Made by a program: the position numbers and the translations under genes. Below, piece after piece: positions 42,384 to 52,322 of a stretch of 64,000 nucleotides of DNA (positions are counted from its first letter, which is position 1; the number at the start of each line of letters is the position of its first letter). A model generated the notes under the pieces. The model was given only the letters and a program-made list of their open reading frames with translations, ran no database searches and was not told where the DNA came from. This stretch comes from an uncultured Anaeroplasmataceae bacterium (lineage in GTDB: Bacteria; Bacillota_I; Bacilli_A; Acholeplasmatales; Anaeroplasmataceae). The stretch is from NCBI GenBank assembly GCA_949840955.1, contig CATKXV010000001.1, positions 1 through 64,000 on the forward strand, given 5' to 3'.

Positions 42384-43266
42384 AATTAAAAATCTGACGA
42401 AGAGCTTCGATGGAAAAATAGTTTTAGAGGAAATTAACCTCACTATTCCAAAAGGGAGCATTTTTGGATTAATCGGAATTAATGGTGCAGGGAAATCCAC
42501 ATTAATGAGAATTATGACAACTGTATATAAGCCCGATTCTGGTGAAGTTCTATTTGAGGGAATAAGTCTTTTTGAATCTAAGGAGATTAAGAAAAAAGTA
42601 TTCTTTTTACCGGATGAACCTTATTATTCTTTAAATGCATCAGTGAAGTCATTACTTCAGCTATATCAATCTTTTTATAAGGACTTAGATAAAGATAAGT
42701 TCTATTATTATATGGATAAATTTGATTTAGATCCAAACAAAAAAATAATTAATTATTCAAAAGGAATGAAAAGAAGATTTTTTATCTGTATAGCTTTAGC
42801 GTGTAAAGTTGAATATATTATTTTAGATGAAGCTTTTGATGGACTTGATCCACTTGCTCGTATTGAATTTAAAAATATGATTACGGATATTTATGAAGAA
42901 TATGAAGATATGACAATTATTTTATCTTCTCATTCTTTAAAAGATTTAGAAGATATTATTGACTCTTTTGCTATCTTAGATAACAAAAAAGTTATTTCTA
43001 GTGGGAATACAAATAATCAATTTGAGCAATATATTAAGTATCGACTTGCTTTTAAAGAGAACAAAGTTCAGCAGAACTTTGATTTTCTCAAGCCTATATC
43101 AGTGAGTATAGAGAATAAGATAATTGAATTAGTATTTAAAAAAGTAGAATCCATATCTTATTTAGAAGAACTTCAAAAAATGAAACCTGTATTTATAGAG
43201 GAGATACCTATTAGCTTTGAAGATTATTTTACGACAATAATAAAAGAAAGCGGGTATATAAAATGA
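42376..43266 (+). CDS. ABC transporter ATP-binding protein (YtrB/EcsA-like)
   Basis: A 296-aa ATPase. Walker A GINGAGKST near residue 36, Walker B IILDEAFDGLDP, switch His in LSSHS. The signature is YSKGMKRR instead of LSGGQ, common in YtrB/BcrA-type exporters. The ATG at 42376 lies inside the regulator's last codons with AAGGAAG 8 bases upstream. A C-terminal domain of about 80 residues follows the nucleotide-binding fold. It functions with the permease that overlaps its stop. Confidence 0.9.
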   Translation: MIEIKNLTKSFDGKIVLEEINLTIPKGSIFGLIGINGAGKSTLMRIMTTVYKPDSGEVLFEGISLFESKEIKKKVFFLPDEPYYSLNASVKSLLQLYQSFYKDLDKDKFYYYMDKFDLDPNKKIINYSKGMKRRFFICIALACKVEYIILDEAFDGLDPLARIEFKNMITDIYEEYEDMTIILSSHSLKDLEDIIDSFAILDNKKVISSGNTNNQFEQYIKYRLAFKENKVQQNFDFLKPISVSIENKIIELVFKKVESISYLEELQKMKPVFIEEIPISFEDYFTTIIKESGYIK

Positions 43267-44291
43267 AAGATGTTTTCAAGTACGAATTAAAAAGAAGTAT
43301 GCCTTTTTTTCCGATATTACTAGGTGTTGGAATTGTCATTTATTTCTTTGTTTTATTAGGAAGTTATTTTGTATCTGTGAGTAGTTTTACGGGCTTTATA
43401 GGTTATTTTACTTTTGCAAGTATTCTTTTATTAATATTCTATAATTTTGGATACAACAAAAAAAGAATTTCCTTAGATTTATATTATGCATTGCCTGTTA
43501 CGCATAAGGAATTATTTTTAGCAAAGTACTTATTTACTTTGGTAGAGATTGTTATTATGTTTATTGTCTTGATGCTATGTTCCTATGTATTTGCTGGATT
43601 GTTAAGTGTTGGAATATCCTTTAGTGGAGAGCATATTTATCTAAAGCATACAGAATTATTGCAGATATTTTACGCAATATTAATTCAACTTATATCAGGA
43701 ATAAGTTTAATGAATGTAATATTATTGTTTTTTAATAGAGCAAATCATTATATAGATGCCATTTTATATATTTTGATTATACTTTTTATCCCTAAAATTC
43801 TTTTAATGAACATAGCCTATATCATTGAACAGACCCAACTCAATGACTTATGTAATTCTGCATTAGATTTTGGATTATATACTATGCTAGGTAGTTGGTG
43901 CAAGTATTATGTATGTAATACATCTGATAATTTTTATACCTTTAATACAGCCTTTGGATTGATTATTACTACAGGGTGTGGCTTATCATTTATCCCACTT
44001 TATATTCATGCAAAAAAATCATTTGCAGAAAAGGTAGAATTACCAGATACAAAAATATTTGGGTATAAAATCCTAATACCAATATTAATTGTATTAGTTC
44101 TCATTTATTTTAGTCTAATAGTGAATTATATCCCTTTAAATCTAATATTATTAGGAGTAGTACTATTACTGCAATATGGTGGTTATGTACTTTTTGAAAG
44201 AACAATAAAGATATCAAAAATAAATTTAATATTAATTGTATCAACCATAATTTTAGGATTGATATTAATGTTTTCTATTAATATAAATTAA
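43263..44291 (+). CDS. ABC transporter permease (ABC-2 like, with YtrA-type system)
   Basis: A 342-aa membrane protein with about 8 hydrophobic segments: FPILLGVGIVIYFFVLLGSY, YFTFASILLLIFYNFG, and the rest spread evenly to the C-terminus. The N-terminal segment ISLDLYYALPVTHKELFLAKY is typical of ABC-2 permeases acting on peptides or cell-envelope stress. ATGA overlap with the ATPase gene. It may export or resist an antimicrobial peptide, or serve the peptidase-lipoprotein pair downstream; the substrate is not visible. Confidence 0.85.
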   Translation: MKDVFKYELKRSMPFFPILLGVGIVIYFFVLLGSYFVSVSSFTGFIGYFTFASILLLIFYNFGYNKKRISLDLYYALPVTHKELFLAKYLFTLVEIVIMFIVLMLCSYVFAGLLSVGISFSGEHIYLKHTELLQIFYAILIQLISGISLMNVILLFFNRANHYIDAILYILIILFIPKILLMNIAYIIEQTQLNDLCNSALDFGLYTMLGSWCKYYVCNTSDNFYTFNTAFGLIITTGCGLSFIPLYIHAKKSFAEKVELPDTKIFGYKILIPILIVLVLIYFSLIVNYIPLNLILLGVVLLLQYGGYVLFERTIKISKINLILIVSTIILGLILMFSININ

Positions 44292-44372
44292 TAATATAAT
44301 TTTAAATCCATTAGAAAGCTTTTATACTAGTGATAAATGTTTAAAAAATTTTAAACAAGGGAGGTAATAAGT

Positions 44373-44414
44373 ATGAAACTTCGATTACTTGTTAGTATGT
44401 GTTTTTTAGAATAA
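44373..44414 (+). CDS. Possible 13-codon peptide with a strong Shine-Dalgarno
   Basis: AAGGGAGGTAATAAGT precedes the ATG. The frame encodes MKLRLLVSMCFLE and stops. It starts like a signal peptide and could be a leader peptide, a tiny hydrophobic peptide, or the truncated 5' end of an older secreted-protein gene. The next real gene starts 78 bases after its stop with a similar GGAGGT site. Confidence 0.3.
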   Translation: MKLRLLVSMCFLE

Positions 44415-44491
44415 TTTAATGTATTTATCTTTAAAAGATTATTCAAACGCAAAAAAACGGTAACTATTTCAATAAGAAGATGGAGGTAAAT

Positions 44492-45745
44492 ATGAAAAAA
44501 TTATTGATTTCAGTATTCGCTTGTGGTCTTGCAGTTCTTACTTTAATGGGAACAGGATCAGTTAAAGCAAACGCACAAACTTTTGAATTTGATGAAAATT
44601 CCTCAAAAACTGTGCAATTGAGCAGTAACTTAACTGCGATAGAAAATAAGAAGCAAAGAGTCAATTTACTTAATTTGATACAATGCCATATTGATTATGC
44701 AATGGAAGATGACGGACAAAGAGAAATTGATAAAGTCAAGGAATTAAAAGATTTCACAGGTTCTATATACACTTTGTTTGAATTAAATCCAGTTGGATAT
44801 ATAATTTATCACAATGATTCAGGTATAGTATTTGAATATGCTTCAAAAAGTGAATCTCCATATTTAGGTTATAATGATAATTTATATTATGGTGGTATGA
44901 TGAATTATTTTTATAAAGAAAATAATACGTATTATAATACTCTTATCAAGTATGAAATTGTTCAAGAAGAAGAAAGTCAATATTTGATTGATAATTCTAG
45001 TATTATATATAATAAAAATCTAGAATTACCTGATCAAACTAATTTAGATTTTGTGAATGGTAAAACAGATGTTTTAACGGTAGTCTCATCATGGAAAAAT
45101 GATGTGGAAATAATGCCATTAGCAACTAACGATCAACCTAATATATCCATGGAGGAATTTTTTAAGCCTCTTATATATAGAGATGAAATGGGATATATGG
45201 CTGGTGGGGTATGTGGCTATATAGCTGCAAATTTGGTTTTAGCCTATAATACATTTGCCTATGATGATTCTTTAGTTTCAGATACTTATTTGGATAAGTC
45301 AAATAAAACTATAAAAGGAGATTTACTTACAAGGGAGTTAATTCATCAACACGGGAAAGATCCAGATTCAAGTAATATATCAGGTACAACAGCCGATAGT
45401 ATGGGAGATTGCGTTAGAAATTATTTGAAAAATGTTAGCGGGGGAACTAAATCATGGAAAGTAACAACTTGGTGGGGTAAAATAAATTCTACAGGTGCTA
45501 TCAAGAAAAATCAGCCACCAATTTTGTTCGGTAACATGAAGTATCCTACAAGTAGTAGCAGTACTTATGAAATTATGAATAATGCTACATCTGGGGATGG
45601 AGCTCATGGTAGTGGAAATCATGCGGTTGTCGCTTATGGCTATACAAACTCTAAATATCGAGTGCATTATGGCTGGTCTGGTTATTCGGATGTTATTCTA
45701 AGTTATAATGCCATTGGTGGAACTATGATTTTGAGTTATTTTTAA
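44492..45745 (+). CDS. Secreted papain-like cysteine peptidase (C10/streptopain-like)
   Basis: A 417-aa exported protein: signal peptide to about residue 28 (VKANAQ), a propeptide-like region of about 180 residues, then a papain-fold catalytic part. GGVCGYIAANLVLAYN gives nucleophile Cys241 followed by a helix. GSGNHAVVAYGY gives His377, and the downstream HYGWSGYSD carries the usual aromatic and Asn/Asp region. This resembles streptopain (C10) and related C39-like putative cysteine peptidases. The ATG at 44492 is preceded by GGAGGT. The next gene is a lipoprotein that could be its inhibitor or partner. Confidence 0.75.
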   Translation: MKKLLISVFACGLAVLTLMGTGSVKANAQTFEFDENSSKTVQLSSNLTAIENKKQRVNLLNLIQCHIDYAMEDDGQREIDKVKELKDFTGSIYTLFELNPVGYIIYHNDSGIVFEYASKSESPYLGYNDNLYYGGMMNYFYKENNTYYNTLIKYEIVQEEESQYLIDNSSIIYNKNLELPDQTNLDFVNGKTDVLTVVSSWKNDVEIMPLATNDQPNISMEEFFKPLIYRDEMGYMAGGVCGYIAANLVLAYNTFAYDDSLVSDTYLDKSNKTIKGDLLTRELIHQHGKDPDSSNISGTTADSMGDCVRNYLKNVSGGTKSWKVTTWWGKINSTGAIKKNQPPILFGNMKYPTSSSSTYEIMNNATSGDGAHGSGNHAVVAYGYTNSKYRVHYGWSGYSDVILSYNAIGGTMILSYF

Positions 45746-45776
45746 TAACATTAATTTGGAAAGGAAAGTTAGTTAT

Positions 45777-46433
45777 ATGAAAAAATATATTTTATGCTTA
45801 CTATTTTGTTTGGTTTTATTAGCGTCTTGTGTAGCAGGTGGGGGTTCTTCATCAAACACTTTACATTTTAACAATGATATAGGAGAATCTTTTGAAATGA
45901 AATTGTATGTAGAGAAATATATACCTAATGGTCATGGTGGACAATTTACATCAGAAAAGACTCTTCAAGAAATAGAAAAAGAAATTCTTGAAAAAAATGA
46001 GTGTAAAATATCTATTAACGAAAATACTTTAGTAGTAGAGAAGACTATGAGTGAAACATCACAAATAGTTACTATTAGTAAATATAAAGATATTTATATT
46101 TTTGAACAACCTCATATAAGTCTTTTAGAAACTGATGATAAGCATGCATCTGAAAAAGCATCATTTTTTGCTCCAACATTTTACATTGATACAGATAGAA
46201 ATACTCATACACATGATTATCATTTGGTTAAAGATCAATGGTATAAGATTAATTGCTCAGAAGAAGAATATATGAATTTTTATAAAAAAACAAATATGTT
46301 TACAATTTTAGAATCAGATTTCTATACTTTGAATATCAAATCTTCTGTTACAAATCGCTTTGATAAGCAAACAAGCATTCAAATAGAATTTAAAGTTGAA
46401 AACAATTTGACTTACATAAAATATAGTATTTAA
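45777..46433 (+). CDS. Lipoprotein of unknown function, next to the cysteine peptidase
   Basis: A 218-aa lipoprotein: lipobox LLASC (Cys18), a Gly/Ser linker (VAGGGSSSN), and a soluble domain without recognisable family. Extended strand-rich segments (ESFEMKLYVEKYIPNG, SQIVTISKYKDIYIFEQ) suggest a beta-sandwich. The ATG at 45777 has AAAGGAAAG upstream; the longer frame begins with TTG and is not supported. It is 31 bases after the peptidase gene, so the two are cotranscribed. In Streptococcus the C10 peptidase gene is followed by its inhibitor gene, a suggestive but unproven parallel. Confidence 0.6.
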   Translation: MKKYILCLLFCLVLLASCVAGGGSSSNTLHFNNDIGESFEMKLYVEKYIPNGHGGQFTSEKTLQEIEKEILEKNECKISINENTLVVEKTMSETSQIVTISKYKDIYIFEQPHISLLETDDKHASEKASFFAPTFYIDTDRNTHTHDYHLVKDQWYKINCSEEEYMNFYKKTNMFTILESDFYTLNIKSSVTNRFDKQTSIQIEFKVENNLTYIKYSI

Positions 46434-46455
46434 CTAGTTTTCCATTTTTCATACT

Positions 46456-46495
46456 ATCCCCTAGCAAATTCATTATGAAAATTTTGCTAGGGGAT
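46456..46495 (+). terminator. Terminator after the peptidase-lipoprotein operon
   Basis: ATCCCCTAGCAAA (46456-46468) is perfectly complementary to TTTGCTAGGGGAT (46483-46495), 13 bp. Confidence 0.75.
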
Positions 46496-46573
46496 TTACT
46501 TATTTAAAAATATGCAAATTTTAATGTATTACTTTAAGTAATTCGTTAAGGGCTTTCTTTTCTATCTAATCAG

Positions 46574-46690
46574 TAGGAACTTTAGTTCCAACCTTTTTCT
46601 CCTCGGGAAACCCACTGGCAAAATACCTAATTGAGGGGAAGAATATTTATTTCTTAGTATTTATACTAAGTAGTAAATAAGAGGCACTAG
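46574..46690 (+). ncRNA. Candidate structured RNA region
   Basis: Three consecutive pairings with no coding: GGAAC/GTTCC (46576-46580 with 46585-46589); TTCTCCTC (46597-46604) with GAGGGGAA (46633-46640), enclosing GGGAAACCC; and CTTAGTAT (46653-46660) with ATACTAAG (46663-46670). Unlike nearby intergenic DNA it is locally G/C-rich. No known RNA class is recognised. Confidence 0.3.
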
Positions 46691-46706
46691 GTTCGGGGTC
46701 AAACAA

Positions 46707-46781
46707 GCAAGCAGAAACTCTAGTTTTAAAAGTTTAATGCATATAAAATGTAAAAACATATGCATTAAACACCATTCATCT
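46707..46781. repeat. 75-bp palindrome-containing repeat, copy 1
   Basis: Begins GCAAGCAGAA and ends ACCATT-ATCT; nearly identical to 48409-48483 except for nine bases after the start and two near the end. It contains TTTAATGCATAT (46733-46744) and ATATGCATTAAA (46758-46769), a perfect 12-bp inverted repeat. It lies 30 bp upstream of the -35 box of the DUF262 fragment. Confidence 0.9.
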
Positions 46782-46811
46782 TTGCAATACAATTGTATGA
46801 GGTAGTAAAAT

Positions 46812-46840
46812 TTGACTATTTATGCTATAATAATTATATA
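46812..46840 (+). promoter_or_regulatory. Promoter of the DUF262 fragment
   Basis: TTGACT at 46812-46817, a 17-bp spacer, and TATATA at 46835-46840. Confidence 0.45.
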
Positions 46841-46866
46841 TTTTTGCTGAAAGGAAAATAAATAAT

Positions 46867-47196
46867 ATGAAGAATATGGTTTCACTTTCAAAATTATTCA
46901 AAGACAGTATTTTTAGAATTCCAGATTATCAAAGAGGTTATGCTTGGGACAATAATCAATTAAATAATTTTTGGGATGACTTGTATAATTTAACAGAAAA
47001 TAGGTATCACTATACTGGTATGTTATCTCTAAAAGAATTAACTGAAAAAGAATACTCAAAATGGGATGAAGGAGAGAAATGGCTTATTGGTAGTGGTTCA
47101 ACTCCATATTATATAGTTGATGGTCAACAAAGTGTCTTGGCCCTTTTAATTTCACCCAGAGAAAACGATGAGTTGTGGGAAATTAAAATACGTTGA
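46867..47196 (+). pseudogene. Truncated DUF262 (GmrSD-like) gene
   Basis: A 109-codon frame holding the N-terminal DUF262 motif: FRIPDYQRGYAWDNNQLNNF and WDDL, then YYIVDGQQSVLALL, where the usual VDGQQR Arg is replaced by Ser. Complete DUF262 proteins run to several hundred residues with further catalytic motifs. Here the reading frame enters the repeated block at 47157 and stops at 47196. DUF262 proteins occur in type IV restriction systems and other defence systems; this one is very likely dead. Confidence 0.75.
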
Positions 47197-47289
47197 TATT
47201 TTGTGCAATTTCCTTTCTCTGCTTTTTTATTTTCATAGGGCAAACAAATAAAACGACTATATCAATCATACTAAAAATGTCTTAGTAAC
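47157..47289. repeat. Copy B of the divergent 135-bp block
   Basis: Homologous to 37171-37308. CAGAGAAA (47157-47164) pairs with TTTCTCTG near 47214-47221, and GGAAATT with AATTTCC inside it, followed by a T-run, so a large terminator-like hairpin is present. It begins exactly where DUF262 similarity ends. Confidence 0.6.
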
Positions 47290-47423
47290 GCCTATATTCG
47301 TTTTATAATATAAGTATCGTCGTTTTATATATAATGTACTAATACATTCAAAAAATAGTTTTGTATCTTACAACCTTTGTCAGCTATTTACTTTTACAAC
47401 TAACTATAAAAGGAGATGGAAAA

Positions 47424-48152
47424 ATGCAAGAATTTATTTGTCCAATTTGTGGTAAAATTCATATGATTATTCTTTATAAATGTGAATGTGGATATGAGGA
47501 AATTCAACGTCCTTTAAGAGACTATAGCGATTATAATAAAATATTATTTTCAATTTATAAATTTTCAAAAGGAATTTTCAATAAAAAAATAGAATGGAAC
47601 CAAAGCAACTATGATTTAGTCAACTATAGTGATAACAGAATTGGCATTTACGAAATTTATGATGATAGAGCGATTGCTTTTGTTGATTTACAAATAAATG
47701 ATAAAATTATAGAAGCCACCAACGGAATTTTGGCTCTTAACCATAATGTAAAATCATTAATTATTAATGCTGATAACTTAGATAGTGAAATGTTAGATGA
47801 ATCTAATGTAAGAATGTTATTCATAGGAAATAGAGTAAAATCAATCTTATCATTTACCAATGCAAGTTTAAAATATCTTGAGGTTGACAAAAACAATTCC
47901 TATTTTACATCCCAAAATAACGTTTTATTTGATAAGAATATGACGCGATTAATTTTTTATTGTAACCTAAAACCAGATGAAGAATATACTATTCCAGAAA
48001 CCGTCAAAGTTGTAAGTGCTCGAGCATTTACAAGATGTTCACAAAAAGATGACCTCTTGAAAGTAATTCACTGTTCTAAAAATGTTAAATTCGAAGATCC
48101 AGGTTGTACTCCATCGCCATATGAATTTATCAAAATTATTCGTAATAAATAA
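47424..48152 (+). CDS. Zinc-ribbon plus BspA-like leucine-rich-repeat protein
   Basis: A 242-aa protein without signal peptide. The N-terminus has a small zinc ribbon: CPIC at 5-8 and CECG near 22-25. A linker follows, then a BspA-type LRR_5 region (about 100-235) with SLIINADNLDSEML, SLKYLEVDKNNSYFTSQNNV and YTIPETVKVVSARAFTRC. The pattern resembles intracellular zinc-ribbon/LRR proteins of gut Firmicutes, unlike the usual surface BspA proteins. The ATG at 47424 is preceded by AGGAGATGG. Function unknown. Confidence 0.7.
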   Translation: MQEFICPICGKIHMIILYKCECGYEEIQRPLRDYSDYNKILFSIYKFSKGIFNKKIEWNQSNYDLVNYSDNRIGIYEIYDDRAIAFVDLQINDKIIEATNGILALNHNVKSLIINADNLDSEMLDESNVRMLFIGNRVKSILSFTNASLKYLEVDKNNSYFTSQNNVLFDKNMTRLIFYCNLKPDEEYTIPETVKVVSARAFTRCSQKDDLLKVIHCSKNVKFEDPGCTPSPYEFIKIIRNK

Positions 48153-48408
48153 TAAAAATCATGCTTGCTATTCGATTGAATAGATATTGATTTTATTAAT
48201 TCATTATAAGACTCAAGTTGTGTTTTTTAATTTTTATAGAATATTATATAGTCTATAATTTCATTGTTTTTTCCTTAATAAGCTTTAAATCATACCTTTG
48301 AAAATTGAGAAATCCAATATTTTTTATGGTGCTAGTTATCAAAATCGACAGATAGCATTCATAGCATAAATATTTAATATAAAGGTTGTTTTTTGTGGCA
48401 AGTATTTT
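48153..48408. other. A/T-rich intergenic stretch, nothing recognised
   Basis: No open frame of note, no strong hairpin and no clear promoter are visible up to the 75-bp repeat at 48409. Confidence 0.6.
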
Positions 48409-48483
48409 GCAAGCAGAAGATATAGGTTTAAAAGTTTAATGCATATAAAATGTAAAAACATATGCATTAAATACCATTAATCT
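48409..48483. repeat. 75-bp palindrome-containing repeat, copy 2
   Basis: Nearly identical to 46707-46781. Its perfect 12-bp inverted repeat is TTTAATGCATAT (48435-48446) and ATATGCATTAAA (48460-48471). It abuts the -35 box of the Fic promoter at 48485. Confidence 0.9.
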
Positions 48484-48484
48484 A

Positions 48485-48513
48485 TTGACTTTCTGCATAT
48501 AAAATGATATATT
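48485..48513 (+). promoter_or_regulatory. Promoter of the Fic gene
   Basis: TTGACT at 48485-48490, a 17-bp spacer, and TATATT at 48508-48513. Confidence 0.75.
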
Positions 48514-48524
48514 ATATGCAGAAA
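48490..48524. promoter_or_regulatory. Perfect palindrome covering the Fic promoter
   Basis: TTTCTGCATATAA (48490-48502) is perfectly complementary to TTATATGCAGAAA (48512-48524), 13 bp, spanning spacer, -10 and start site. The core TGCATATAAAATG is shared with the 75-bp repeat. It fits an operator for autorepression by the Fic protein's own winged helix. Confidence 0.75.
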
Positions 48525-48537
48525 AGAAGGCTTTAGT

Positions 48538-49587
48538 ATGAAAAAATTTGATTACTCATTTTTAAAAAATGGTTTACTACCTGCTAAATTAGTCAATTTG
48601 ACAAGCGGTATCTATTCATTAAAGACAATGGCTAATTTAAGAAAAGAAGAATATGAGAAAATATTTACTGAGCTTGAATCAATTGCTAAGATTCAATCAG
48701 TTAAAAGTTCAAATGCCATTGAAGGTATAGTGACAAGCGATGAAAGAATTAAAGAAATCATCAATGGCGACAGTGCTCCGTTAAATCATGACGAAGCTGA
48801 AATCGTTGGGTATAGGGATGCATTAAATCAAATTCATTCTAATTATGGACATATTGAATTTTGTGAGCGAGATATTTTGAGCTTACATCAAATAATGATG
48901 TCTTATGCAGGATATGAATATGGAGGAAAATACAAAGATAATGACAATGTCATCATGGAAATTGATCCTTCTGGTAATAGAAAAGTAAGATTTAGACCTA
49001 CACCAGCATCGGAAACAAAAGAAGCAATGGAACAATTGACTTTGGCTTATGCTGATGCAAGTAGTGATGCCAACATCAACCAACTTCTTTTGATCCCTTG
49101 TGTTATTCTTGATTTTTTGTGCATTCATCCATTCCGTGATGGAAATGGTAGAATGTCAAGACTTCTTTCTTTGCTGTTGCTGTATAAAAACGGATTTGAT
49201 GCTGGTAAATATGTATCATTTGAAGAACAAATCAATAATTATAAAGGTTATTACTATGAAGCTTTGAGATTATCTTCTGATAAGTGGGCTGAAAATGGAA
49301 ATTCCTATTTTCCATTTATTGAGAATTTTTTATCCACACTTTATATGTGTTATAAAGAGCTTGATAAGAGATTTGCAGTTGTAAATGGTGGTAAAGTAAC
49401 GAAGAAAGCAAGAATTGAAGCAACCATTCTCAATAGTTTAATACCAATATCAAAAGCTGAAATATGTAAAATTCTTCCTGATGTTAGTCCAACAACAGTG
49501 GAATCGGTGTTAAGTGCAATGTGTCGTGAAGGTTTAATAATAAAAATTGGAGCATCAAGATCAACAAGATATATAAGAAATAAATAA
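48538..49587 (+). CDS. Fic-family protein with C-terminal winged helix
   Basis: A 349-aa Fic protein, predicted to transfer AMP (or another nucleotide part) to protein hydroxyls. The active motif HPFRDGNGRMSR is intact at 197-208 with catalytic His197. SSNAIEG near 57-63 is the inhibitory (S/T)xxxE(G/N) motif on the N-terminal side, giving a class II Fic with Glu62. The C-terminus (about 285-349, ISKAEICKILPDVSPTTVES) is a winged helix typical of Fic proteins that bind DNA. AGAAGG is 7 bases before the ATG. The palindrome in its promoter supports autoregulation. Confidence 0.93.
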   Translation: MKKFDYSFLKNGLLPAKLVNLTSGIYSLKTMANLRKEEYEKIFTELESIAKIQSVKSSNAIEGIVTSDERIKEIINGDSAPLNHDEAEIVGYRDALNQIHSNYGHIEFCERDILSLHQIMMSYAGYEYGGKYKDNDNVIMEIDPSGNRKVRFRPTPASETKEAMEQLTLAYADASSDANINQLLLIPCVILDFLCIHPFRDGNGRMSRLLSLLLLYKNGFDAGKYVSFEEQINNYKGYYYEALRLSSDKWAENGNSYFPFIENFLSTLYMCYKELDKRFAVVNGGKVTKKARIEATILNSLIPISKAEICKILPDVSPTTVESVLSAMCREGLIIKIGASRSTRYIRNK

Positions 49588-49818
49588 AAACAAATACGAT
49601 TATTACAGCAATTATTATTTACGAATTTAAAATTTGAAAGAAAGATAAAATAACGCAAAATAAAGAAATAGAAAAGGGAGAAGACTACTTTGAACTTTTA
49701 CAAGATAAAAATATAGAGCAATTTATTTCAATGTTTGAAAAATTGGAGTAATTTAAATCTATAATAAAAAAAGATTGCTAATCAATTCAAGTTGTGCTAA
49801 AATACATTTGGGTATTTC
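49588..49818. other. Intergenic stretch with a short coding-like remnant
   Basis: The frame around 49653-49751 reads ITQNKEIEKGEDYFELLQDK then NIEQFISMFEKLE and stops, with no start or domain. It may be the C-terminal scrap of a lost gene. Otherwise nothing until the riboswitch. Confidence 0.35.
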
Positions 49819-49944
49819 CAAGTTATAGGGGAGTAGTTTGCTAGCAATAGTAGTTGGCCTACATCATGGGTTATCCCAGGTTCAACTTTAAAAAACGAGA
49901 CTTATGCTTATTATAGAGATATAATAGGTATAGGTCTTTTATTT
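49819..49944 (+). ncRNA. yybP-ykoY-type manganese riboswitch with terminator
   Basis: The aptamer contains the conserved GGGGAGTAG (49828-49836), a first hairpin around TTGCTAGCAA, then AGTTG with ACATCA (the CGUCA-type loop), TGGG/CCCA, and CAACT closing the second arm. CGAGACTT (49896-49903) closes P1 against AAGT at 49820. AGACTTATGC onward (49898) also forms a long terminator with TATAATAGGTATAGGTCT and a T-run to about 49944. The two structures compete for AGACTT, so Mn binding should block termination. Downstream genes are cation exporters. Confidence 0.82.
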
Positions 49945-49960
49945 TTAGGAGGTAGTAAAA

Positions 49961-50998
49961 ATGTTGCCAAGCTTAGATATGTTTCAATGGTGGAGCTGGA
50001 TTGTTTGTATTGTATTGCTTATTTTAGGAATATTTTTCTTAGTCAAGTTTTCAGATATATTTGTAGATGCATCCTCATCTATCGCTAAAAGATTTCATAT
50101 ATCAGAAATGATTATTGGACTTACTATCGTGGCCTTTGGCACAAGCTGTCCTGAGCTTGCCGTTTCCGTTTCTGATTCTATAACCTGCCTTTTAGAGGGT
50201 GGAAATGCAAATGTTGCTATAGGAAATGTAGTTGGATCTAATATTTGTAACCTATTGCTTGTATTAGGCTTTAGTGCTATTTTTACACCCATTCTAATAA
50301 AAAAGACAGTATGTAAAAAGGAATTTCCAATTTTGGTATTTGTAACAGCATTACTCGTAATTTTTGGATTATGCTTTAATTTGAATGGAGTTTATGCCAT
50401 ACTCCGGTGGGAAGGAAGCATCTTCATTTTACTTATTCTTGTTTATGTAGTTTACCTTGTATTTGATGCAAAGCGAATGATGAAATCAGGAATTGAAATG
50501 GAGGCAGAGGAAATTGCATTAATGCCAACGTGGAAATCCATTGTATTTGTTTTACTTGGGCTTGTAGGAATTGCTGTTGGTGGGGAAGCTGTTGTATATG
50601 GTGCTAAAAATATTGCTGTTGGGGTTGGAGATATAGCTCATTTAAATCATGATTTGGTGGAATCCCTGGTGGGATTGACAATCGTTGCTGTAGGCACCTC
50701 ATTACCTGAGCTTGTTACAAGTATTGTTGCAGCGAAAAAGGGACAAAATGATATGGCCTTAGGAAATGTGATCGGTTCAAATATATTCAATATTTTATTT
50801 GTTTTAGGTATTGCTGGTACGATTAATCCTTTGACCGTAGGAAATCAAATTGTATTTGATTTGACAGTTATGATGATTTCTACATTGCTTGTATTTGGCT
50901 TATGTTTTTTCGGGAAAATCAATCGGAAATGTGGCGCTGCTTTATTAGGGTGCTATGCAGGATATTTAATATATTTAATCTGTAGAACGGTAATGTAA
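49961..50998 (+). CDS. CaCA-superfamily cation antiporter (YrbG-like), probably Mn/Ca exporter
   Basis: A 345-aa membrane antiporter of the Ca2+:cation type with about 10 helices. The two inverted alpha repeats are clear: TIVAFGTSCPELAVS with GNVVGSNICNLLLVLG near the start, and TIVAVGTSLPELVTS with GNVIGSNIFNILFVLG in the second half. Bacterial members exchange Na+ or K+ for Ca2+. Control by the Mn riboswitch suggests that it also, or mainly, exports Mn2+. AGGAGGTAG precedes the ATG, and mntP starts 1 base after its stop. Confidence 0.92.
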   Translation: MLPSLDMFQWWSWIVCIVLLILGIFFLVKFSDIFVDASSSIAKRFHISEMIIGLTIVAFGTSCPELAVSVSDSITCLLEGGNANVAIGNVVGSNICNLLLVLGFSAIFTPILIKKTVCKKEFPILVFVTALLVIFGLCFNLNGVYAILRWEGSIFILLILVYVVYLVFDAKRMMKSGIEMEAEEIALMPTWKSIVFVLLGLVGIAVGGEAVVYGAKNIAVGVGDIAHLNHDLVESLVGLTIVAVGTSLPELVTSIVAAKKGQNDMALGNVIGSNIFNILFVLGIAGTINPLTVGNQIVFDLTVMMISTLLVFGLCFFGKINRKCGAALLGCYAGYLIYLICRTVM

Positions 50999-50999
50999 T

Positions 51000-51599
51000 A
51001 TGTGGCAGCTTATACTTAATGGTCTTTTTTTAGGAATTGCTTTAACTATGGATGCCTTTAGTGTATCGATAGCTGATGGGCTTAATGAGCCAAATATGAA
51101 AAGAAGAAAAGCACTTATGATTGCTTCTACCTTTGCATTATTTCAATTTGCTATGCCTCTAATTGGATGGCTATGTGTTCATACGGTGATGGAAAGGTTT
51201 ATGGCATTTCGCTATTGGATACCCTGGATTGCATTAGTATTGCTCAGCTTGATTGGTGGCAAAATGATTTATGAAAATTTTAAGAAGAGGATACATCCAA
51301 TAGAAGAACAGAAGCCTCCTATGTCATTAGGCTATCTTGCTTTAGTTGTTCAAGGTATTGCGACCTCAATCGATGCACTATCTGTTGGTTTTACCATTGC
51401 AGAATATACTGTATATCAAGCTTTACTTACCTCAACAATTATTGCTGTTGTTACAGTTTTATTTTGTTTATTTGGCTTGTTTTTTGGAAAAAAAATATCA
51501 AATAAGTTATCTTCCTATGCAGAGCTAATCGGAGGAGTTATTCTTATAGGGATAGGCTTAGAAATCTTTATAAGCAATATGATAGAGCTTTATGGATAA
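51000..51599 (+). CDS. mntP: Manganese efflux pump MntP
   Basis: A 199-aa six-helix MntP exporter (formerly YebN/DUF204). The repeated Asp motifs are ALTMDAFSVSIADG in helix 1 and VQGIATSIDALSVGFT in helix 4, both needed for Mn2+ export in E. coli MntP. It is translationally coupled to the CaCA antiporter and lies behind the same Mn riboswitch, so the assignment is well supported by context. A terminator follows at 51638. Confidence 0.95.
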   Translation: MWQLILNGLFLGIALTMDAFSVSIADGLNEPNMKRRKALMIASTFALFQFAMPLIGWLCVHTVMERFMAFRYWIPWIALVLLSLIGGKMIYENFKKRIHPIEEQKPPMSLGYLALVVQGIATSIDALSVGFTIAEYTVYQALLTSTIIAVVTVLFCLFGLFFGKKISNKLSSYAELIGGVILIGIGLEIFISNMIELYG

Positions 51600-51637
51600 C
51601 GTATTAGGAAGTAAAATTAGAAATAGAGTACGAATAT

Positions 51638-51671
51638 AAACCGTTAAGACGACAAATCGTAACGGTTTTTT
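51638..51671 (+). terminator. Terminator after mntP
   Basis: AAACCGTTA (51638-51646) pairs perfectly with TAACGGTTT (51660-51668), with a T-run. Confidence 0.8.
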
Positions 51672-51680
51672 CATTTATCA

Positions 51681-51709
51681 TTGAAATCATAGGCTATTCA
51701 TTGTATAAT
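51681..51709 (+). promoter_or_regulatory. Promoter of the XRE-pot operon
   Basis: TTGAAA at 51681-51686, a 17-bp spacer, and TATAAT at 51704-51709. ATTGT-T-ACAAT (51713-51723), a perfect dyad, lies at the start site and may be the regulator's operator. Confidence 0.75.
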
Positions 51710-51788
51710 AGCATTGTTACAATAATTGTTTAGGAATTTCTAACCAAAAGTTTAGTAATAATAAACAAAAGGGGAGGTCTACTTTGGA

Positions 51789-52322
51789 ATGAATCTCGGA
51801 CTTAAAATCAAAGAAAAGAGAACCTTGCTGATGCTTACACAGGAGGAGCTAGCCAATCGATGTGAGCTTACAAAGGGATATATATCACAGCTTGAAAACA
51901 ATAAGGTATCCCCTTCGATAGAAACGTTAGAAATTATCTTAGATGTTTTAGGAACAAATTTTTCTGATTTTTTTCATGAAGAAACAGAAGAGCGAATCAT
52001 TTTTACGGAAGAAGAACAATATACAAAAGAATTTGACGGATATCGACAAACATGGCTCGTCCCCACCTCACAGGAGCATGCCTTAGAACCAATTTTCGTC
52101 GTTATTGATCCCCATAAGTTTACAATCCATGATTATCCTCATCCTGGGGAGGAATTTGGATATGTTATAGAAGGTGAAATCATGGTGCACTATGGGAATA
52201 TAAGGAAGCTTTGTAAAAAAGGAGAATCCTTTTATATCACGACAAACTCAACGCATTATTTAGAAAATCGTACGAATGCTCCTGCAAAACTGGTATGGGT
52301 ATCCACACCACCAAATTTTTAA
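51789..52322 (+). CDS. XRE-cupin regulator of polyamine transport (PuuR-like)
   Basis: A 177-aa protein with an N-terminal lambda-repressor-type HTH (LGLKIKEKRTLLMLTQEELA, LTKGYISQLENNKVSPSIET) and a C-terminal cupin domain (HPGEEFGYVIEGEIMVHYGN, KGESFYITTNSTHYLENRT). This fusion directly before potABCD is the common polyamine-responsive regulator of Firmicutes. GGGAGG lies about 10 bases before the ATG. potA begins 17 bases downstream, so it is first in the operon and probably autoregulated. Confidence 0.93.
   Translation: MNLGLKIKEKRTLLMLTQEELANRCELTKGYISQLENNKVSPSIETLEIILDVLGTNFSDFFHEETEERIIFTEEEQYTKEFDGYRQTWLVPTSQEHALEPIFVVIDPHKFTIHDYPHPGEEFGYVIEGEIMVHYGNIRKLCKKGESFYITTNSTHYLENRTNAPAKLVWVSTPPNF

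What the first reader, a model, noticed from the sequence alone, without database searches (positions are those of the whole stretch)
46707..48524. A palindrome family recurs three times around a Fic gene and a DUF262 fragment
A 75-bp repeat occurs at 46707-46781 and 48409-48483, each with a perfect 12-bp inverted repeat. The second copy abuts the Fic promoter, which is itself covered by a perfect 13-bp palindrome sharing the core TGCATATAAAATG and the closing ATATGCA. The first copy lies just upstream of the DUF262 promoter. Three related sites suggest a local regulon bound by one protein, perhaps the Fic winged helix.
Basis: partly seen in the sequence, partly recalled or inferred. Interest (0 to 1): 0.66.

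Follow-up and report, generated by a model that had tools for sequence, protein, structure and literature searches.

The report
Self-repressing Fic enzyme's paired operator
A bacterial Fic (AMP-transferring) enzyme very probably switches off its own gene by binding two matching DNA palindromes over its promoter; the same paired sites sit in front of its relatives in dozens of bacteria, and the third, distant copy in this genome looks like a leftover duplicate rather than part of a wider gene network.

Summary
The palindromes are real and correctly placed. TGCATAT-N13-ATATGCA occurs exactly three times in the whole 2.1-Mb genome, all here, so this is not a transposon family. In 80 Fic orthologs (74-91% identical) from Clostridia, Erysipelotrichia and Anaeroplasma, nearly every gene has the same palindrome (TTTCTGCATATA-N-TATATGCAGAAA) over its promoter, and 70 of 81 loci have a second one 53-55 bp (or about 44 bp, one helical turn less) upstream. 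In more distant Fic relatives the palindrome keeps its position but changes sequence. Those changes follow the Fic winged-helix recognition helix, not the catalytic core (partial Mantel r=0.32, p<0.0005, versus 0.05, p=0.26). No other neighbour is conserved. The Fic protein is therefore very probably the binder and an autorepressor, as shown for one Fic protein, Yersinia CccR (PMC9755527). The 'regulon with DUF262' half of the reading is not supported. The DUF262 ORF is a 109-aa remnant, its relatives lack the site, and whole-genome scans find sites almost only at fic. The copy at 46707 is most likely a relic duplicate of the Fic upstream operator. New variant of a known kind.

The parts
48538..49587 (+). 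fic gene, 349 aa: class II Fic AMP-transferase with C-terminal winged helix
   Evidence: Pfam Fic 57.8 bits; Fic motif HPFRDGNGRMSR and inhibitory motif SNAIEG; PADLOC SoFic 112.7 bits
49402..49584 (+). winged helix-turn-helix domain (residues 289-349); recognition helix about residues 318-330 (PTTVESVLSAMCR)
   Evidence: AlphaFold pLDDT about 70-93 here with H-H-H-E-E order; VIA-align Z about 9-11 to Fur/PerR, TtgV-operator and BlaI winged helices
48490..48524 (.). promoter-proximal operator TTTCTGCATATAA-N9-TTATATGCAGAAA, covering spacer, -10 and start region
   Evidence: conserved in nearly all 80 orthologs
48435..48471 (.). upstream operator TTTAATGCATAT-N13-ATATGCATTAAA (inside the second 75-bp copy), 54 bp centre to centre from the proximal one
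   Evidence: a counterpart site in 70 of 81 loci
48485..48490 (+). -35 element TTGACT of the fic promoter
   Evidence: sequence; 17-bp spacer conserved in 63 of the 64 near homologs with a detectable -35/-10 pair
48508..48513 (+). -10 element TATATT of the fic promoter, inside the palindrome
   Evidence: sequence
48409..48483 (.). 75-bp repeat, copy 2
46707..46781 (.). 75-bp repeat, copy 1: duplicate of the fic upstream operator region without the promoter-proximal site; palindrome 46733-46769 intact
46867..47196 (+). DUF262/GmrSD N-terminal remnant (109 aa), homology lost after VDGQQ near 47130
   Evidence: Pfam GmrSD_N profile positions 1-68 of 199 only; full-length relatives of 600 aa or more
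46812..46840 (+). candidate promoter of the DUF262 remnant (TTGACT-N17-TATATA), not overlapped by a palindrome
   Evidence: sequence; consensus match only

Best explanation
The palindromes are the operators of the Fic protein itself. A Fic dimer binds each palindrome through its C-terminal winged helices. The proximal site covers the spacer and -10 of the fic promoter, so binding there blocks RNA polymerase. The second site, five helical turns upstream on the same DNA face, lets two dimers bind cooperatively. The result is tight negative feedback on an autoinhibited, potentially toxic AMP-transferase. The 46707 copy is a relic duplicate of the upstream operator left by a local rearrangement; it could still bind Fic, but there is no sign that it controls a working gene. 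Shown here: sites, positions, conservation, spacing, covariation with the winged helix, absence of dispersed copies. Inferred: binding, repression, cooperativity, toxicity.
For: Three exact sites in the genome, all here. Same palindrome over the promoter in nearly all of 80 orthologs of other families and orders. Second site at 52.5-55.5 bp in 65 loci and 43.5-44.5 bp in 5, none between; the short class arose at least twice on the tree. No neighbour is shared by more than 12 of 80 loci, so a separate local regulator is unlikely. Among 11 genomes of the genus only the two with this Fic have the site. De novo palindromes at the promoter in 48% of distant homologs (under 55% identity) versus 4% of shuffles, with different sequences. 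Operator distance follows the recognition helix after removing Fic-core distance (r=0.32, p<0.0005); the core adds nothing after the winged helix (p=0.26). Winged helix modelled with confidence. Experimental precedent: CccR represses its own promoter through palindromes (PMC9755527).
Against: No binding or expression data for any protein of this clade. Some distant homologs show no clear palindrome. The evidence for helical phasing rests on two independent changes only. The partial Mantel test cannot fully remove shared ancestry. Copy 1 has kept its palindrome unchanged while its flanks diverged (P=0.014), which hints that it may still be used.
Confidence: 0.87

Rival explanations
1. A local regulon: Fic binds all three sites and controls both fic and the DUF262 gene (a defence cassette).
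For: Copy 1 keeps a perfect palindrome, with no mismatch inside 37 bp against 6 outside, and lies 5' of a GmrSD-type ORF. In L094 an extra site lies before a KilA-N gene, itself a defence candidate family.
Against: The DUF262 ORF is a dead 109-aa remnant; full-length relatives lack the site. The site is about 50 bp upstream of the candidate promoter and does not overlap it. The L094 extra site is a decayed copy of the fic promoter itself, and KilA-N relatives lack sites. Whole-genome scans of 50 fic-bearing genomes find few convincing sites outside fic loci.
Confidence: 0.07
2. Copy 1 is a distant auxiliary operator of fic, held by DNA looping over 1.7 kb, as lac auxiliary operators do.
For: Intact palindrome with diverged flanks; same orientation and the same sequence as the upstream operator.
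Against: Found in no ortholog; the Anaeroplasma relative L020 has only the two proximal sites.
Confidence: 0.06
3. Miniature transposon or other dispersed repeat.
For: 75-bp repeat with inverted repeats.
Against: Only these copies in the genome; orthologous position before fic in dozens of species.
Confidence: 0.01
4. The palindromes are bound by another, unlinked regulator that happens to control fic.
For: Binding by Fic itself has not been shown; no tool result favours this.
Against: The operator sequence changes with the Fic winged helix and moves with fic between families; genus members without this Fic have no site.
Confidence: 0.05

Closest known systems
CccR (Yersinia pseudotuberculosis), a class II Fic protein with C-terminal HTH that represses its own promoter (PMC9755527)
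   Same: Fic domain with N-terminal inhibitory helix, C-terminal HTH, palindrome near -35/-10 of its own gene, dimer needed for repression
   Different: CccR uses one operator AGATAATCAT-N26-ATGATAATCT; here there are two operators about 54 bp apart, half-site TTTCTGCATAT, arms separated by N13/14 (measured between the TGCATAT and ATATGCA cores). No secretion system was seen or sought here
SoFic / Sofic anti-phage Fic proteins (PMC12249575; PADLOC SoFic)
   Same: Class II Fic with C-terminal domain; PADLOC SoFic match; several orthologs lie next to defence genes
   Different: Far below the NCBIfam SoFic equivalog cut-off (35 of 550 bits); no AS1-like small gene downstream. The Sofic paper treats the CTD as a regulator of toxicity and, in the passages read here, does not mention DNA binding
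CbFic2 (Coxiella burnetii; PMC10628234)
   Same: Class II Fic with winged HTH; DNA binding shown
   Different: Its specific DNA target is unknown; random DNA was used. Here the target can be predicted
Fido domain-containing protein of PDB 8uqu
   Same: Closest solved sequence, E 1e-64, covering both Fic and winged-helix parts
   Different: Function not stated in the record; DNA target unknown

Membership tests
[quoted passage not shown]
   HPFRDGNGRMSR; motif present in 135 of 138 homologs checked
Class II Fic AMP-transferase | Inhibitory motif [S/T]xxxE[G/N] N-terminal to the Fic core | tested here: met
   SNAIEG at residues 58-63, ahead of the Fic motif at 197-208
Class II Fic AMP-transferase | Transfers AMP to a protein target | not testable with these tools
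   needs biochemistry
CccR-type autorepressing Fic | C-terminal (winged) HTH DNA-binding domain | tested here: met
   model residues 289-349, winged-helix matches Z about 10
CccR-type autorepressing Fic | Palindromic operator over its own -35/-10 | tested here: met
CccR-type autorepressing Fic | Same operator sequence and spacing as CccR | tested here: not met
   TTTCTGCATAT with N13/14 versus AGATAATCAT with N26
CccR-type autorepressing Fic | Shown binding and repression | not testable with these tools
   EMSA or reporter needed
SoFic anti-phage system | NCBIfam SoFic equivalog score above cut-off | tested here: not met
   35 bits against 550
SoFic anti-phage system | Small AS1-like antitoxin gene downstream | tested here: not met
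   only a 20-aa + strand ORF before the next gene
Miniature transposon (MITE) | Many dispersed copies in the genome | tested here: not met
DUF262/GmrSD restriction gene | Intact N- and C-terminal domains | tested here: not met
   109-aa fragment matching positions 1-68 of 199 of the N-domain versus 600 aa or more in L102

The most novel reading that the evidence does not exclude
The C-terminal domain of Sofic-like defence Fic proteins is, family-wide, a sequence-specific repressor with its own operator, and bound operator DNA also acts as an allosteric brake on the enzyme. The paired, helically phased operators would then hold the toxin both unexpressed and inactive until infection disturbs the complex. 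Orphan operators such as copy 1 would be residual or captured binding sites that titrate the protein.
Probability: 0.2. Interest if true: 0.75.

Novelty: new variant of a known kind. Interest (0 to 1): 0.5.

Why it matters
Class II Fic proteins are by far the largest Fic class (about 80% according to PMC9755527), yet how they are controlled is almost unknown. One case of self-repression has been shown (CccR). The sequences here predict self-repression for a large set of Fic proteins, give exact binding sites to test, and give a first table of recognition helix against operator half-site (for example VSPTTVE with TTTCTGCATAT, SLSISSIEG with TTTCCCTTAAA, ISDTTIQRT with TTTAATTTAGTCAT). The table should be portable to other members.

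Tried and rejected
MITE or dispersed repeat: rejected. Known RNA element: no Rfam match in 43000-52000. DUF262 as co-regulated gene: relatives lack the site. KilA-N as a co-regulated gene (from the L094 extra site): 20 relatives lack sites. Extra sites in other genomes: a broken fic copy in L202, a fic fragment beside the site in L249, and otherwise weak or chance-like sites (L198-L203) or unexplained orphans. AlphaFold of the whole protein failed (single sequence pLDDT 37; with 43 orthologs 46 overall), so no dimer geometry could be argued; only the winged helix is reliable. An AS1-like antitoxin downstream was not found. The local mismatch-tolerant scan is uninformative because three mismatches are met by chance about 8.5 times per window.

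Full report
OBSERVATION. Copy 1 (46707-46781) and copy 2 (48409-48483) differ at 6 of 75 positions, none inside the 37-bp palindrome. The third palindrome, TTTCTGCATATAA-N9-TTATATGCAGAAA (48490-48524), lies on the fic promoter: -35 TTGACT at 48485, 17-bp spacer, -10 TATATT at 48508. The exact pattern is found only at these three places in the 2.1-Mb genome, with no hit for the reversed control, and the 75-mer has no other copy. Of 11 genomes of the genus only two have the pattern, this one and G001. The G001 locus (L100) carries a fic gene 86% identical at DNA level with the same two sites.

THE SITE BELONGS TO FIC. A scan of about 85,000 species genomes gave 80 orthologs at 74-91% identity, mainly in Lachnospiraceae, Oscillospiraceae and Erysipelotrichia, with Anaeroplasma the nearest. 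Reading the 90 bases before each start codon shows the same palindrome over the promoter nearly everywhere. A half-site matrix built from them (TTTCTGCATATA) found no hits in 0.64 Mb of shuffled sequence and, besides fic promoters, only a few extra sites in the loci. In 70 of 81 loci there are two sites: 65 pairs have centres 52.5-55.5 bp apart and 5 have 43.5-44.5 bp, with none between (one further pair at 22.5 bp is a low-scoring call). The difference is one turn of B-DNA. A maximum-likelihood tree needs at least two separate origins of the short class (a seven-row clade and L090), although three of the seven rows (L031, L043, L065) were labelled short from weaker upstream sites. In L063 both sites have moved 35 bp further from the start codon together, keeping their 55-bp spacing. 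These facts fit two dimers bound cooperatively on one DNA face; cooperativity itself is an inference.

THE SITE FOLLOWS THE WINGED HELIX. In Fic homologs of 31-66% identity from 392 genomes of the phylum the palindrome often stays at the same place but has other sequences: TTTAATTTAGTCAT (e.g. L157), TATTCTCACAAA (L177), TTTCCCTTAAA (L167, L186, L189), TCGTCCAAAA (L182). A palindrome score of 8 or more near the promoter is seen in 88% of close and 48% of distant homologs, against 4% of shuffled upstream sequences. Across 44 non-redundant homologs, operator distance correlates with recognition-helix distance after removing Fic-core distance (r=0.32, 0 of 2000 permutations as high), while core distance adds nothing once the winged helix is removed (r=0.05, p=0.26). 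No other gene is conserved beside fic (at most 12 of 80 loci). The binder is therefore most likely Fic itself. The C-terminal 61 residues are modelled as a winged helix with high confidence and resemble Fur/PerR, TtgV and BlaI domains; the rest of the model is poor and was not used. Some viral contigs carry relatives with the same or diverged promoter palindromes.

WHAT IT IS NOT. The DUF262 ORF is a 109-aa remnant: homology to full-length relatives stops near VDGQQ, where L102 and L103 continue to 600 aa or more. None of the related DUF262 loci has the palindrome. Copy 1 lies about 50 bp upstream of a candidate promoter and does not overlap it. Pattern scans of 50 genomes with this fic found one to three sites each, nearly always at fic. 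Of the exceptions read, one adjoins a broken fic copy (L202) and the rest are weak or chance-like. In a 392-genome scan 13 genomes had a site, six of them at an intact fic and one beside a fic fragment. The strongest in-locus exception, L094:8076, is a decayed duplicate of the fic promoter region. Tandem fic pairs exist in other genomes (for example G367 contig 3, G390 contig 2). A duplicated, decayed fic promoter region is thus the simplest source of copy 1. Its intact palindrome (P=0.014 for no mismatch inside) leaves room for a residual binding role.

COMPARISON. CccR of Yersinia is the experimental precedent: a class II Fic with C-terminal HTH that binds AGATAATCAT-N26-ATGATAATCT at its own promoter and represses it as a dimer (PMC9755527). 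Here the half-site, the spacing and the number of operators differ, so this is a variant and not a copy. CbFic2 binds DNA and changes between AMPylating and deAMPylating states (PMC10628234), which suggests that operator binding could also silence the enzyme; that is speculation here. Sofic proteins are anti-phage toxins whose C-terminal domain is needed for toxicity (PMC12249575). The window protein matches the PADLOC SoFic profile but is far below the NCBIfam SoFic cut-off and lacks an AS1-like gene. In 12 of 80 loci fic is directly followed by an SLFN_AlbA_2 gene (PADLOC PDC-S50), in seven loci then by a PycC-like cyclase and in three by a PycTM effector, so a defence role is plausible but untested.

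VERDICT. Ordinary in outline (a self-repressing gene), but a new variant of a kind with one proven example, with predicted binding sites and a specificity table for a large and poorly understood protein class.

Noticed in passing
window 46554-46716: Interspersed repeat of the genus: 46617-46716 matches contig C5:54913-55012 at 85%, and 46554-46641 matches L020:431-516 at 81%. It ends where copy 1 of the 75-bp repeat begins; no Rfam match.
   Followed up: partly
L024:5054-8197, L027, L047, L064:2463-5050, L067: fic is the first gene of a run fic - SLFN_AlbA_2 (PDC-S50) - PycC-like cyclase - PycTM: a possible Fic-led Pycsar-type defence operon under the Fic operator.
   Followed up: partly
L248:1502, L256:1502 (and L249:1502 beside a fic fragment): Orphan copies of the Fic operator with no fic gene detected beside them (L248, L256), or with only a fragment (L249).
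   Followed up: partly
L197 (G000 contig C5:46400-48200): A second, distant Fic gene in the same genome has a different palindrome, TTTTGTGCA...GTGCACAAAA, enclosing its TTGACA box.
   Followed up: no
window 47424-48152: 242-aa protein with an N-terminal zinc-ribbon-like Cys pattern and no Pfam match, lying between the DUF262 remnant and fic.
   Followed up: no
window 44480-45745: Secreted protein with a sub-threshold match to the mycoplasma-type cysteine peptidase family (NF045837, 40.2 of 45 bits).
   Followed up: no
L237, L238, L239 (viral contigs): Fic homologs (41-42% identity) with palindrome TCTGCATCA...TGATGCAGA just upstream, suggesting the arrangement extends beyond the clade studied.
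   Followed up: no
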